A DNA stretch of 64,000 nucleotides from Paludibaculum sp. Its GTDB lineage: Bacteria > Acidobacteriota > Terriglobia > Bryobacterales > Bryobacteraceae. The notes beneath the pieces are model-generated. The model ran no database searches. It saw only the letters and a program-made list of their open reading frames with translations, and was not told the origin of the DNA. Positions within the stretch are counted from its first letter, which is position 1. Each line of letters starts with the position of its first letter. The stretch is from assembly GCA_029973955.1 (NCBI GenBank), contig JARKQJ010000007.1, forward strand, positions 1 to 64,000. Reading direction: 5' to 3'. This document shows positions 29,223 to 33,979 of this stretch, piece by piece. The translations under genes were made by a program, and so were the position numbers.

Positions 29223-29906
29223 ATGCGCAAACTGGTCATCGTTGCCCTTCTGGCCGTCGTGGCCCTGAGCTCCGCATCTGGGCAGCGCACCCCTTACGTT
29301 CGCGCGTCGGGGGAGGGAGTGGCTTCGATCAAGCCGGATCAGATGAAGCTGACGGTGGGAGTGACCACGCAGGCGGAAACCGCGCAACAAGCTGCCGCGG
29401 ACAATGCCGCGCGGTCCACGCAGGTGATCGACGCACTGCGCAAGCTGCTGGGCCCCTCGGCGGAGTTGCAGACCATCGCCTACAACGTCACTCCGTTGTA
29501 CAAGTACCCGTCCGGCGGGACGCCGGTGCTCTCCGGCTACAGCGCGTCCAACACTCTTGAAGCGACCACAGGGGATCTGTCGATCGCCGGCCGCCTGATT
29601 GATGTAGCGGTGGGAGCGGGCGCGACTTCGGTGGGCAGCATCCGGTTCGGGCTGAAGGACCCGCAGCCAGCCAAGCAGATCGCCCTGAAGCTGGCCGTGC
29701 AGCAGGCCCGCTCCAGCGCGGATGCCATGGCCGGGGGGCTGGGCGCGAAGCTCGGCTCGGTGATCTCGATTGCGGAAGCCAGCGTGGCCACGCCGGTCTA
29801 TAGCGACCGGAGTACCGCTGCGGGCGCGGCGACGGTGACACCGGTTGAGACGGGTATGGTCGAGGTCCGCGCCTACGTGGTGATCGAGGCGCAGTTGGCG
29901 AACTAG
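29223..29906 (+). CDS. SIMPL-domain (DUF541) secreted protein
   Basis: The 227-residue protein has a signal peptide (1-19) and a SIMPL/DUF541 domain. The start of the mature part carries VRASGEGVASIKPDQM and the core shows TIAYNVTPLYKYPSGG followed by a GYSASNTLEATT strand. Family members form periplasmic or outer-membrane-associated oligomers (BP26-like channels, YggE-like stress proteins). It sits 19 bases after the alcohol dehydrogenase on the same strand. Its stop overlaps the convergent amidohydrolase fusion by 4 bases. Confidence 0.9.
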   Translation: MRKLVIVALLAVVALSSASGQRTPYVRASGEGVASIKPDQMKLTVGVTTQAETAQQAAADNAARSTQVIDALRKLLGPSAELQTIAYNVTPLYKYPSGGTPVLSGYSASNTLEATTGDLSIAGRLIDVAVGAGATSVGSIRFGLKDPQPAKQIALKLAVQQARSSADAMAGGLGAKLGSVISIAEASVATPVYSDRSTAAGAATVTPVETGMVEVRAYVVIEAQLAN

Positions 29907-32851
29907 CGGGAACTGGCCGCGCGCTCGTTCAGATACTCTTCGATGTTGGTGTAGCCGTCGTTGTCGCGGTCCAGAGCGGCATCGCGCGGGTCGTTGGGAT
30001 TCAGGCCCTTGGCGCGTTCCCATTCATCGGGCATGCCGTCAGCGTCGGTGTCCTTGGGTGCGGCAACGGCGGGGTAGACAGGCCAGCCGCCCACTTCCTT
30101 GGTCGCGTCGATGATGCGGCCCTTGCCCGTGCGTACCTCTTCGATGATGCGGGTGTCGACGGCATCTCGCACGGGCCGCGAGGCGCCGGCGCCGGCCAAC
30201 ACCAGGTTGTAGGCTTCCCGCGCGGTGACCGTCTTCACGGGCATGGCAGAGAAAGGCGCGTCCATCAATTCAAAGAGCGGGCGGCCCGCTTCCTGCCGCG
30301 GCTCGAACATGGCGGCGTCGTTCTTCGAGAACTGCGGGCGGCCCTCCACCTCGTTGCCGCTGACGAAGTACTTCACGCGCGCCGTTTTGGTGAGGATGAT
30401 GGGCGGGCGCTGGCTGCTTTCCGGACCGGGCTTGAGATAGTTGTTCACGTAGTTGGCGCTGAGCACATCGCCGGTCATTCCGCTGCAAATGGCGCCCCAC
30501 AGGGCCATGACGTTGTTGCGCACGTCGAAGGTGGGGAACGGCGGACGGCCGTAGTTGTCGCCGAGACGCGGGTTGCGGGCGATGTTCTTCACCCAGAGAT
30601 TGTGATGGAAACTGACGCCGCCGATGGCGCGGGCCAGCGAGCCGTAGCCGTGCTCGCCCTTCTTGTGGACGCTCTTGCGCAGCGATTCGCCAATGAGGCT
30701 CCATTGCACGGTGACGTCGCGAATTCCGCCGCTGGGCGAGAGCGATTCATCGACGGACCAGGAGGCGGAGCAGTGGTCGACCACCACGTTGTAGCTGTCG
30801 CCGCCGATGGAGATGGCATCCACTTCCTTGCCCAGCACTTCGCCGGGCCGCGAGCGGAGGTAGCGGATGACGACGTCATGCGTGGAGACCACCAGGCCCG
30901 CTCCGCGCAGGCAGATGCCCTGGCCTGGCGCGCTTTGCCCGGCGAGCGTGACGAAGGGTTCGCGGATGCGGATCTCGTCCTTGAGGTCGATGATGCCGGA
31001 GACACCGAAGACGACAACGCGCGGCCCCTTGGCCTCCAGCGCCTCGCGCAGGCTGCCCGGGCCGCTGTCGTTGAGGTTCTTCACCACATCGACGCGGCCG
31101 CCGCGGCCGCCGGCCGTGGCGGAGCCGAAGCCTTCGGCGCCGGGGAACGCGGGGAGATCGCGGCGCGTGATCTTACCGTCGAGCATGGTGAGCACGGGGT
31201 GGATCATGCGGATCTCATCTTCCGGGCAAGTGAGGATGTCGCGATCGATCACGATGAGATCCGCCAGCTTGCCCGGTTCGATGGAGCCGGATTGCTTTTC
31301 GCTGAAGTGCATGTAAGCAGCGCCGGTGGTGTGCATCCGGATGGCCTCTTCGCGCGTGATCTTCTGCTCGGGATAGATCACCTTGCCCTCCGTGGTGCGG
31401 CGCGTGATGGACATCCACATGCCGTAGAAGGGATTGAAGGGATTGACGGCGTTGTCGGGATTGTGGCCGAGCATGTGATCGCTGCCGCCGGCGACGACGA
31501 TGCCGTGGTCGAGGTATTCGCGCAGCGGATAGAAGTGGCTCATGTTCTGGAGGCCGAAGACGCGCTCCAGAGCCGGCTCATCGAAGTGGAGCCAGCCAGG
31601 CTGTACGTCGGCGAGGATGCCGAGGCGTTTCATCTTCTCAATCGATTCGGCGCTTTGAAAGCTGCCGTGCATCACGTGGGAGCGTGTGGGCGCGATGGGC
31701 TTCACTTTGTCGAGGCGGTCGAAGGTGTCCAGCAGAACGTCGATGGCGCCGCCGCCCTGGACGTGGGCGGTCATCTGCCATCCCTTGTCGCGCGCGGCGG
31801 AGAAGATGGTGTAGAGCTTGTCAGGCTCGACGAAGAGCGTGCCGCGCGCGTCCGGGTTGGTCTGGCCGTAGAGTTGCCGGCCGAAGGGGCCGTAGGGCAT
31901 GCGCTGGTAGGCCGTGCCGACGGACTGGCCGCCGTCGAGGGTCACTTTGAAGGCGCCGAATTTCAACCAGTCGTCGCCCTGGTTCGTGGTCCACTTGGAG
32001 GCCTGGATCTCTCGCACCACTTCCCCGGTGGGCCGCGCGGCGTTGATGCGCCAGGTGAGCACGACGCGAATCGGCAGCCGGCCCTGCGTCTTGAGTTTCT
32101 CAAACAGTGCCACATCTGAAGGCGTCACGGCGCGGTCACCCACAGCCGTGAGACCGGTGCTGGCGTAGATCTTCAGCATCTTCTCCAGAGCGGCCAGTTT
32201 CTCTTCCTCGGTGTAGGGCTCGGCCTTGGAGATGCCCTTGAGCAGTTGGGAAGCGTTGCGCAGGATGCCGTTGGGCTCGCCGTCGGCGCCCTTCACCACT
32301 TCCCCACCCGGCGGATTGGGCGTGTCTTTCGTGATGCCGCTGATCTTGAGCGCCATCGTGTTGGCCGACCAGACGTAGCTGCCGTCGAAGGCCACGGGAT
32401 GATCGGGCGTGACATCGAGGTCCTGCCGAACGGGCATGCGCATTTCCTTCAGGCGCGGCGGCAGAGTGCGCGGCACGATGATCCATTCGCCCTTGGGCGT
32501 GGTCTTGGCCTTGGCACGAATGAACTCCTGAATGGCGATGATGCTGTCGAAGGGCGGCAAAGGAGAGCGGAATTCGCTGAGGCCGGACTCGAGCGCGTGG
32601 ACGTGCGCGTCAATGAGGCCGGGCAGCACGCTGCGGCCCTGGAGGTCGATCACCTGAGTTTTGGCGCCGCGCTCCTTGGCGAGCACGTCCTTGCTGACGC
32701 CCACGGCGACGATGCGGTTGCCGCGAATGGCCACGGCCTGCTGCACGCTGAAGCTACCGTCTACGGTGATGATCTTGCCGTTGTGCAGGATGAGGTCGGC
32801 ATCGGCGCCCCAGGCTGCGGCGGCGATGAGAATAAGAGCGGATCGGCGCAT
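29903..32851 (-). CDS. YtcJ-like amidohydrolase fused to a pectate lyase with Ca-binding tail
   Basis: This 982-residue secreted protein joins two unrelated enzymes. After a signal peptide (1-16), residues 20 to about 563 are an amidohydrolase of the YtcJ group: LPGLIDAHVHA with H83/H85, a central HVQGGGAID, SHVMHG, GSDHM and a closing GSIEPGKLADLIVIDRD strand. At about residue 566 it changes without linker to LPAFPGAEGFG, the opening of PL1-type pectate lyases, whose parallel beta-helix continues to about 905 (VVVDHCSASWSVDE, SFHHNLWVKN). Residues 934-970 hold two D-x-D-x-D-G calcium repeats. Neither half is visibly damaged. Alternatives are a genuine bifunctional enzyme, a recent deletion fusion, or an assembly join near 31155. 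Confidence 0.88.
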   Translation of the reverse strand: MRRSALILIAAAAWGADADLILHNGKIITVDGSFSVQQAVAIRGNRIVAVGVSKDVLAKERGAKTQVIDLQGRSVLPGLIDAHVHALESGLSEFRSPLPPFDSIIAIQEFIRAKAKTTPKGEWIIVPRTLPPRLKEMRMPVRQDLDVTPDHPVAFDGSYVWSANTMALKISGITKDTPNPPGGEVVKGADGEPNGILRNASQLLKGISKAEPYTEEEKLAALEKMLKIYASTGLTAVGDRAVTPSDVALFEKLKTQGRLPIRVVLTWRINAARPTGEVVREIQASKWTTNQGDDWLKFGAFKVTLDGGQSVGTAYQRMPYGPFGRQLYGQTNPDARGTLFVEPDKLYTIFSAARDKGWQMTAHVQGGGAIDVLLDTFDRLDKVKPIAPTRSHVMHGSFQSAESIEKMKRLGILADVQPGWLHFDEPALERVFGLQNMSHFYPLREYLDHGIVVAGGSDHMLGHNPDNAVNPFNPFYGMWMSITRRTTEGKVIYPEQKITREEAIRMHTTGAAYMHFSEKQSGSIEPGKLADLIVIDRDILTCPEDEIRMIHPVLTMLDGKITRRDLPAFPGAEGFGSATAGGRGGRVDVVKNLNDSGPGSLREALEAKGPRVVVFGVSGIIDLKDEIRIREPFVTLAGQSAPGQGICLRGAGLVVSTHDVVIRYLRSRPGEVLGKEVDAISIGGDSYNVVVDHCSASWSVDESLSPSGGIRDVTVQWSLIGESLRKSVHKKGEHGYGSLARAIGGVSFHHNLWVKNIARNPRLGDNYGRPPFPTFDVRNNVMALWGAICSGMTGDVLSANYVNNYLKPGPESSQRPPIILTKTARVKYFVSGNEVEGRPQFSKNDAAMFEPRQEAGRPLFELMDAPFSAMPVKTVTAREAYNLVLAGAGASRPVRDAVDTRIIEEVRTGKGRIIDATKEVGGWPVYPAVAAPKDTDADGMPDEWERAKGLNPNDPRDAALDRDNDGYTNIEEYLNERAASSR

Positions 32852-32881: not shown

Positions 32882-33979
32882 ATGACGCGCAGAGAACTGC
32901 TCGCCGCACTGGGAACGGCGCCCGTCCTCGCTGAGAAAACGCCTCCTGCCACTCCCGTGGCCGTGGCCCGCTGTGCGCGGTACGACACGGACCTGGCCGC
33001 CACGCTCGGCGGGATGTTCGATCAACTCGGCGGACTCGGCGGCCTGGTCAACAACAAGACTGTCACCATCAAATTGAATCTCACCGGCAGCCCTGGGCTG
33101 CGCTTCCAGGGCCGGCCGCTGGGCAACACGCACTACACGCATCCACGCACGGCACTGGCGCTCGCCCACTTGCTGGGCCGCGCCGGCGCGCGCCGCATCC
33201 GCTTCGTGGAAAGCTGCTGGGCCACGGCCGGGCCGCTGGAAGAGTACCTGCTCGAATCGGGCTGGAACGTGCGTGCGCTGAAGTCCGCCGCGCCCAATGT
33301 GGTGTTCGACAACACCAATGCGCGCGGGCCGCACAAGGACTATGCACGCTTCCGGGTGCCCGGCGGCGGAACCGTGTTTCCTGGCTTTGACCTCCATCGC
33401 GCCTACGACGAAACAGACGTCTTCGTCTCCATGGCCAAACTGAAGCAGCACAAGACCACCGGGGTCACGCTCAGCATGAAGAACATCTTCGGCATCACGC
33501 CGTCGTCGATCTATGGCGACGATGCGGGCGTCGATGCGCCCAATGAGAATCCCACCAAGGGGCGCGTCACGATCCTGCACGAAGGCAAGCGCCAGCCATC
33601 GGCCACCGCGCCCGCAGAACTCGACCCCAAGTCCAGCCGAAGCGGCGGCCAGCGCGTGCCGCGCATCGTGGCCGAACTCGCGGCCGCCCGGCCCATTCAC
33701 ATCTCGTTCATCGACGGCGTTGAGACGATCGCCGCCGGCGAGGGGCCGTGGATCGATGGCATCCGCTATGTGCAGCCCGGCCTGCTGGTGCTGGGCACGA
33801 ACCCGGTCTCCACGGATGCCGTGGGCACGGCCCTGATGGGCCTGGACCCGCGCGCGCAGTTCGCGGATTGCGCCAACATGATGCTGCTGGCCGAGCAGAT
33901 GGGTGTCGGCAGCGCGGACCTGAAGCAGATCGAGGTGCGCGGCGGCGCGCTCAAGGACCTCGTCTACCGCTTCTCCTGA
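32882..33979 (+). CDS. DUF362-domain protein with export signal
   Basis: The 365-residue protein starts MTRRELLAALG, a short twin-arginine-like signal. The body matches DUF362: VTIKLNLTGSPG (about 60), a THPRTALALAHLL helix, FVSMAKLKQHKTTGVTLSMKNIFG (in two blocks around 180-205), and a late VLGTNPVSTDAVGTALMG segment. DUF362 proteins are often fused to ferredoxins or found next to carbohydrate genes, and the biochemical role is unknown. Here there is no iron-sulfur motif. Its 3' end overlaps the convergent gene at 33964 by 16 bases. Confidence 0.87.
   Translation: MTRRELLAALGTAPVLAEKTPPATPVAVARCARYDTDLAATLGGMFDQLGGLGGLVNNKTVTIKLNLTGSPGLRFQGRPLGNTHYTHPRTALALAHLLGRAGARRIRFVESCWATAGPLEEYLLESGWNVRALKSAAPNVVFDNTNARGPHKDYARFRVPGGGTVFPGFDLHRAYDETDVFVSMAKLKQHKTTGVTLSMKNIFGITPSSIYGDDAGVDAPNENPTKGRVTILHEGKRQPSATAPAELDPKSSRSGGQRVPRIVAELAAARPIHISFIDGVETIAAGEGPWIDGIRYVQPGLLVLGTNPVSTDAVGTALMGLDPRAQFADCANMMLLAEQMGVGSADLKQIEVRGGALKDLVYRFS

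What the first reader, a model, noticed from the sequence alone, without database searches (positions are those of the whole stretch)
29903..32851. Amidohydrolase fused to a pectate lyase in one secreted protein
One intact 982-residue frame carries a complete YtcJ-like amidohydrolase (metal motif H83/H85 to the closing IVIDRD strand) joined without linker, at about residue 565 (DNA near 31155), to a complete PL1-type pectate lyase with a calcium-repeat tail. I know of no established enzyme with this pairing. The lyase half has no signal peptide and depends on the amidohydrolase leader. It could be a bifunctional enzyme acting on modified pectin, a new deletion fusion, or an assembly artefact.
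Basis: partly seen in the sequence, partly recalled or inferred. Interest (0 to 1): 0.7.

Follow-up and report, generated by a model that had tools for sequence, protein, structure and literature searches.

The report
Conserved amidohydrolase–pectate lyase fusion protein
One bacterial gene joins two normally separate enzymes, a metal-dependent amidohydrolase and a pectin-cutting lyase, in a single apparently secreted protein; the same joined gene is kept in several related species, so it is real and not recent, and I found no description of this pairing.

Summary
The minus-strand ORF 29903-32851 encodes 982 residues: a leader, a complete PF07969 (YtcJ-like) amidohydrolase and, without linker at residue 566, a PL1_2-type pectate lyase with calcium-loop-like motifs. 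It is not an artefact of one assembly. Seven genomes of two genera carry it, 4 of 9 and 3 of 5 searched, one being a single contig. Both halves show purifying selection, and the metal-ligand and catalytic positions checked are kept in the fused copies. The nearest stand-alone lyases begin with the same motif just after their leader, so an exported enzyme replaced the lyase's leader. In two more species with the same neighbour the lyase is gone, and a DNA scar of its ends shows deletion from an older fusion. No further fusion appeared in samples of 399 class and 396 phylum genomes or among 69 named lyase-only loci. Best reading: a bifunctional exoenzyme whose lyase rides on the amidohydrolase's export. 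Action on one modified polyuronan is possible but unproven.

The parts
29903..32851 (-). Fusion gene, 982 aa: leader + amidohydrolase + pectate lyase
   Evidence: found in 7 genomes
32798..32851 (-). Putative Sec signal peptide, about residues 1-18
   Evidence: read by eye; similar leaders in fused relatives; no predictor was run
31163..32797 (-). YtcJ-like amidohydrolase (PF07969), residues 19-563; candidate metal ligands H83, H85, K302, H363, H392 or H395, D458
31151..31162 (-). Junction, residues 564-567: C-terminus of the amidohydrolase runs into the mature start of the lyase (LPAFPGAEG begins at 566)
30053..31156 (-). PL1_2-type pectate lyase domain, residues 566-933; D692, D701, R759, R762
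29915..30052 (-). Calcium-loop-like tail (DTDADGMPDEWE ... DRDNDGYTNIEEY), residues 934-979
   Evidence: TSP3_bac below cut-off; positions; pseudo-EF-hand of PfPL1
32882..33979 (+). Divergent neighbour (label DUF362 recalled, not tested); beside the gene in the 7 fused and 2 scarred loci
29223..29906 (+). Convergent neighbour (label SIMPL-domain recalled, not tested); overlaps the stop by 4 bases

Best explanation
This is a real, not recent gene fusion that makes one exported bifunctional protein. SHOWN by sequence: the end of a YtcJ-like amidohydrolase with its own leader is joined, at the mature start of the protein, to a PL1_2-type pectate lyase without a leader; this is kept in seven genomes of two genera with purifying selection and the checked active-site positions intact in both halves; and in two species of one genus the lyase was deleted from such a fusion, leaving a scar and a stand-alone amidohydrolase. 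BEST SUPPORTED but not proven: one fusion event. INFERRED: the polypeptide leaves the cytoplasm on the amidohydrolase's leader and the lyase rides as cargo. Outside the cytoplasm the C half cuts polygalacturonate-type chains by beta-elimination with R759 as the base. The N half uses a two-metal site to hydrolyse an amide or ester on a still unknown substrate. The amidohydrolase is the core function, since stand-alone copies are widespread and it survives loss of the lyase; the lyase is a dispensable add-on that ties pectin cutting to the same place and amount.
For: Full-length fusions in 7 genomes, one a single contig. C-half tree: the 7 fused lyases form one clade, 100/100, inside a 13-row clade with stand-alone lyases of five family genomes and one Opitutae locus. 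dN/dS 0.05-0.39 over 36 N-half pairs (the two scarred copies included) and 0.11-0.36 over 21 C-half pairs. Metal-site and lyase positions kept in every fused row that has letters there. The five nearest stand-alone lyases have PAFPGAEG directly behind a leader-like N-terminus (leaders judged by eye). Scar: the G144 tail matches the last codons of the lyase, 0 of 2000 shuffles against G099 and against G154, 3 of 2000 against G044. The fusion is the only PelZ-type match in the window's genome, which also has 8 GH28 and 2 GH88 matches.
Against: No signal-peptide program was run. dS reaches 1.39, so the ratios are rough. The free amidohydrolase-half tree does not join the two fused groups (the window's group goes with other genera at 69/93); holding them together is not rejected (p-AU 0.407). 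For G126 the scar evidence is weaker (10, 63 and 65 of 2000 shuffles reach it). The same tree marginally rejects the two scarred species as one clade (p-AU 0.044; groups named after seeing the tree), although their scars are alike.
Confidence: 0.72

Rival explanations
1. The two active sites cooperate on one substrate: the amidohydrolase removes an amide- or ester-linked group from a modified polyuronan or its fragments, and the lyase cuts the same chain.
For: The fusion is kept in both genera with both sites intact. The lyase's second PDB relative is VexL, E 2.3e-16, whose product complex holds N-acetylated galacturonate units (PMC11229556). Precedents: a secreted PF07969/YtcJ enzyme hydrolyses taurine-conjugated bile salts (PMC13081902, passages), and an enzyme with an amidohydrolase-superfamily module desulfates iota-carrageenan (PMC4144425, passages).
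Against: Stand-alone amidohydrolases of this group are common and no lyase lay near those examined. Two species dropped the lyase and kept the amidohydrolase. Of 94 held loci with a lyase, 81 have no amidohydrolase of this family in the held DNA. The substrate of this amidohydrolase group is unknown to me.
Confidence: 0.25
2. Assembly artefact or chimera in this draft genome.
For: The window genome is a 282-contig draft with 6.05% estimated contamination.
Against: Same junction in six other genomes, including the single-contig G099. The gene of G150 is cut by a contig end near residue 107, not at the junction.
Confidence: 0.01
3. Neutral fusion: the lyase is attached by chance and no longer matters.
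For: The lyase is gone in two species, and one fused copy (G047) has a degraded second calcium loop.
Against: C-half dN/dS is 0.11-0.36 over 21 pairs, and R759, D692, D701, E702 and H734 are present in 7 of 7 fused rows.
Confidence: 0.08
4. Two fusions arose independently in the two genera, or one genus passed the locus to the other.
For: Three large-genome members of the window's genus lack the fusion and have a 58-59% stand-alone amidohydrolase of another branch. The free amidohydrolase tree does not join the two fused groups (52/61 and 69/93).
Against: One clade of fused lyases, 100/100; same junction and same divergent neighbour in both genera; one clade of the nine amidohydrolase halves is not rejected (p-AU 0.407). 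The lyase clade and shared neighbour speak against two separate fusions but not against transfer.
Confidence: 0.25

Closest known systems
[quoted passage not shown] also PelZ of Dickeya and BT_4115/4116/4119 (names from PMC11229556)
   Same: C half aligns over residues 568-871 (E 1.1e-44); by my count in that alignment catalytic R220 falls on R759; calcium-binding motif at the C-terminus
   Different: PfPL1 has its own signal peptide; here the lyase is the C-terminal half of an amidohydrolase fusion. The paper also names Arg235, which I could not match to an arginine
YtcJ-like amidohydrolases (PF07969/COG1574), e.g. metalloBSH of Bilophila (PMC13081902, preprint, passages) and PDB 3icj
   Same: Full-length PF07969 match and the same ligand order HxH, K, H, H, D; metalloBSH is secreted too
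   Different: Substrate unknown here; metalloBSH has an additional C-terminal domain that the passages I saw do not call a lyase
[quoted passage not shown]
   Same: A multi-module protein with an amidohydrolase-superfamily module that acts on an anionic polysaccharide; a signal peptide was predicted in its close relative Q3IKL4
   Different: Partner modules are beta-propellers, not a lyase; its relationship to this amidohydrolase was not tested
AepA of Pectobacterium
   Same: Recalled as a YtcJ-like protein; [quoted passage not shown]
   Different: Family membership not tested here. PMC6286560 (passages) says it may serve use of atypical nitrogen sources and cites a 2010 paper, seen by title only, that it does not regulate those enzymes

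Membership tests
Amidohydro_3 / YtcJ-like amidohydrolase (N half) | Match to PF07969 above the curated cut-off over the whole model | tested here: met
   300 bits against 29.7, model 1-471 of 472
Amidohydro_3 / YtcJ-like amidohydrolase (N half) | Six metal-site positions (two His of HxH, Lys, two His, Asp) as in metalloBSH | tested here: met
   H83, H85 in 6 of 6 fused rows with letters and 26 of 26 stand-alone rows; K302, H363, H395, D458 in 7 of 7 and 26 of 26; H392 in 7 of 7 and 22 of 26 (26 of the 35 N-only rows were aligned, the two scarred copies and three distant paralogues among them); order from PMC13081902. Which of H392/H395 is the ligand was not settled
Amidohydro_3 / YtcJ-like amidohydrolase (N half) | Metal-dependent hydrolase activity | not testable with these tools
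   needs protein
PL1_2 pectate lyase (C half) | Sequence relationship to a characterised PL1_2 enzyme over the beta-helix | tested here: met
   PfPL1/9buj E 1.1e-44; PL1_2 assignment of PfPL1 from PMC11229556
PL1_2 pectate lyase (C half) | Catalytic arginine | tested here: met
   R759 in 7 of 7 fused and 21 of 21 stand-alone rows; R762 in 7 of 7 and 18 of 21 (21 lyase rows aligned, chosen from the 90)
PL1_2 pectate lyase (C half) | Second catalytic arginine, printed as Arg235 in PfPL1 | tested here: inconclusive
   by my count position 235 of the PDB chain is not an arginine in the alignment
NCBIfam NF041900 PelZ equivalog | Score above the curated cut-off of 840 bits | tested here: not met
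   180.9 bits, so it is not filed as PelZ itself
Pfam pectate lyase families | Any Pfam pectate-lyase model matched | tested here: not met
   only TSP3_bac below cut-off in the C half
PL1_2 pectate lyase (C half) | Parallel beta-helix fold | not tested

The most novel reading that the evidence does not exclude
The fusion is a natural two-step enzyme for an amide- or ester-substituted polyuronan: the YtcJ-like half strips a substituent that blocks the lyase, and the PL1_2 half then cuts the chain. That would give this large amidohydrolase group a polysaccharide-related role and tie it to pectin-type polymers.
Probability: 0.22. Interest if true: 0.75.

Novelty: new variant of a known kind. Interest (0 to 1): 0.52.

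Why it matters
Amidohydrolases of this kind are very common in these bacteria: 143 of 150 family genomes matched the query at E 1e-20, most of the listed matches being to the amidohydrolase half. Most of the superfamily is uncharacterised (PMC13081902, passages). A conserved fusion to an enzyme of known chemistry is a clue to where such a protein works and perhaps on what. The locus also shows a whole exported enzyme taking the place of a signal peptide, and a later deletion of the passenger that left parts of both its ends as a readable scar, so the order fusion-then-loss in those species does not rest on trees alone.

Tried and rejected
Artefact and recent fusion: rejected by independent genomes. 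Limits: two candidates per genome were scored, with cut-offs 1e-40 and 1e-150, so a divergent fusion could be missed. Long open frames around amidohydrolase matches in G357 (two), G015 and G261 were fetched; the amidohydrolase ends within 6 residues of the frame's end and no lyase was found in those loci. A linked-gene origin (neighbours that lost the stop between them): no lyase was found near the stand-alone amidohydrolase loci (E 1e-15, flanks up to about 9 kb, shorter at contig ends). AepA as a regulatory link: dropped, as the sources disagree. One deletion against two in G126/G144: unresolved. The scars match at 23 of 25 bases, but a G126+G144 clade has p-AU 0.044 and a G044+G154+G099 clade 0.029. 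Identities in 40-codon windows show no clear exchange except possibly at the 3' end. First rpoB tree was wrong because some rows were read on the wrong strand; replaced. One search read three loci on the wrong strand; redone. Positions 303, 364, 393 and 396 were off by one; corrected. A draft of this report gave the scar match to G154 as 23 of 27 bases; recounted, it is 22 of 27.
Full report
WHAT IS THERE. The minus-strand frame 29903-32851 is one intact gene of 982 codons. Residues 66-562 match Pfam Amidohydro_3 from end to end. Residues 566-762 match NCBIfam PelZ, and 568-871 align with the solved lyase PfPL1, PDB 9buj. That paper (parts 1-2 of 3 read) places PfPL1 in PL1 subfamily 2 and describes a calcium-binding pseudo-EF-hand at the C-terminus. 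The window protein has calcium-loop-like motifs there, though its Pfam TSP3 matches are below cut-off. No Pfam pectate-lyase model matches, and the PelZ score is far below that model's own cut-off, so I call it a PL1_2-type relative and not PelZ itself.

IT IS CONSERVED. Searches by family (150 genomes) and by genus (9 and 5 genomes) find the fusion in seven genomes. In the window's genus these are G000, G150 (93%), G127 (80%) and G047 (77%), 4 of 9. In a second genus of the same family they are G044, G099 and G154 (72-73%), 3 of 5. G099 is one contig. G150's gene is cut by a contig end near residue 107; a matching first part lies at the end of another contig beside the same divergent neighbour. 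Two genomes of the window's genus (G151, G153; 84 and 78% complete) have no match at 1e-60. Three large-genome members (G100, G145, G152) carry a 58-59% stand-alone amidohydrolase, and G100 a separate 52% lyase.

HOW IT WAS MADE. Stand-alone amidohydrolases of related genera end within a few to about a dozen residues of the point where the fused proteins run into the lyase. In the five nearest stand-alone lyases (L038-L042) PAFPGAEG follows directly on a leader-like N-terminus (judged by eye), and this is the sequence at residues 567-574. So the mature lyase took the place of the amidohydrolase's stop, and the amidohydrolase took the place of the lyase's leader. The two genes are not near each other in the unfused relatives examined: no lyase around the stand-alone amidohydrolases, and of 94 held loci with a lyase only the 13 that hold the fusion (7 distinct genes; some loci are repeats) have an amidohydrolase of this family. 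The seven fused lyases form one clade, 100/100, inside a 13-row clade (100/99) with stand-alone lyases of G019, G086, G082, G011 and G100 and one Opitutae locus. The amidohydrolase halves are less clear. The free tree puts the window's group with other genera (69/93) rather than with the second genus, but one clade of all nine is not rejected (p-AU 0.407). One fusion event is the simplest reading; transfer of the locus between the genera is not excluded.

HOW IT WAS LOST. G126 and G144 belong to the second genus and share the gene order: divergent neighbour, amidohydrolase, then a gene that I label glycerol kinase from its sequence (recalled label). Their amidohydrolases end in a short tail. 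It begins like the lyase's first codons (AFP) and continues into the lyase's last codons, read in another frame. The right part of G144 matches G154 at 22 of 27 bases without gaps. Of 2000 shuffles, 0 reach the score against G099 or G154 and 3 against G044; for G126 the counts are 10 (G044), 63 (G099) and 65 (G154). The left part is short and by itself weak (42 to 1698 of 2000 shuffles reach it). The two scars match each other at 23 of 25 bases, which suggests one deletion. The amidohydrolase tree, however, pairs G126 with fused G044 (99/95) and puts G144 with G099 and G154 (88/71), and it marginally rejects a G126+G144 clade (p-AU 0.044). rpoB pairs G044 with G126 (100/97) and puts G144 next to them (100/98). 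Two losses, or one loss plus exchange of the locus, remain possible.

WHAT IT LIKELY DOES. Selection keeps both halves: dN/dS 0.05-0.39 in 36 N-half pairs (scarred copies included) and 0.11-0.36 in 21 C-half pairs, with dS partly saturated. Metal-site positions known from a secreted YtcJ-like enzyme (PMC13081902, preprint, passages seen) are present in the fused copies that have letters there, as are R759 and the other lyase positions checked. The window's genome has no other PelZ-type match (draft, 94.5% complete) but has 8 GH28 and 2 GH88 matches, so growth on pectin is plausible. I conclude that the protein is exported by the amidohydrolase's leader and carries two working enzymes; export and both activities are inferred, not shown. 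Whether the two act on one substrate is open: retention in two genera speaks for it; the many stand-alone amidohydrolases and the loss of the lyase in two species speak against.

COMPARISON AND NOVELTY. Each half belongs to a known family. The pairing was seen in the class sample only in the two genera (6 of 399 genomes), in the phylum sample only in the window's own genome (1 of 396), and in 3 of the 80 named loci kept. Paper searches listed no paper that names it; only capped listings were seen (for example 8 of 1,030), and the library lacks most subscription journals. PL1_2 domains do occur with other partners in fetched loci. I therefore call it a new variant of a known kind: a new domain architecture.

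LIMITS. No structure model, no signal-peptide predictor, no reads, no activity data. Neighbour gene names marked as recalled were not tested against a family library.

Noticed in passing
G100:C2:24258-26128, G145:C1:1238417-1240290, G152:C59:256528-258401 (L204-L206): In the three large-genome members of the window's genus, the orthologue of the divergent neighbour gene (32882-33979) stands beside a GH28-family gene where the fusion stands in the window.
   Followed up: partly
L102:5830-8559: An Armatimonadota locus appears to have two tandem PL1_2-type domains in one 910-residue frame (second domain judged by eye).
   Followed up: no
L046:8691-10751 and L048:5242-7314: Two family genomes carry a lyase of this group behind a similar N-terminal region of about 330 residues of unknown kind, another fusion of this lyase group.
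   Followed up: no
L053:8170-11598: The G047 fusion has a degraded second calcium loop (LNGGGYTAIEQ in place of RDGDGYTNIEE).
   Followed up: no
L054, L055, L159: In the second genus the fusion frame runs on past the lyase; in G044 and G099 it overlaps the start of the next gene in another frame, and the G154 tail looks the same.
   Followed up: partly
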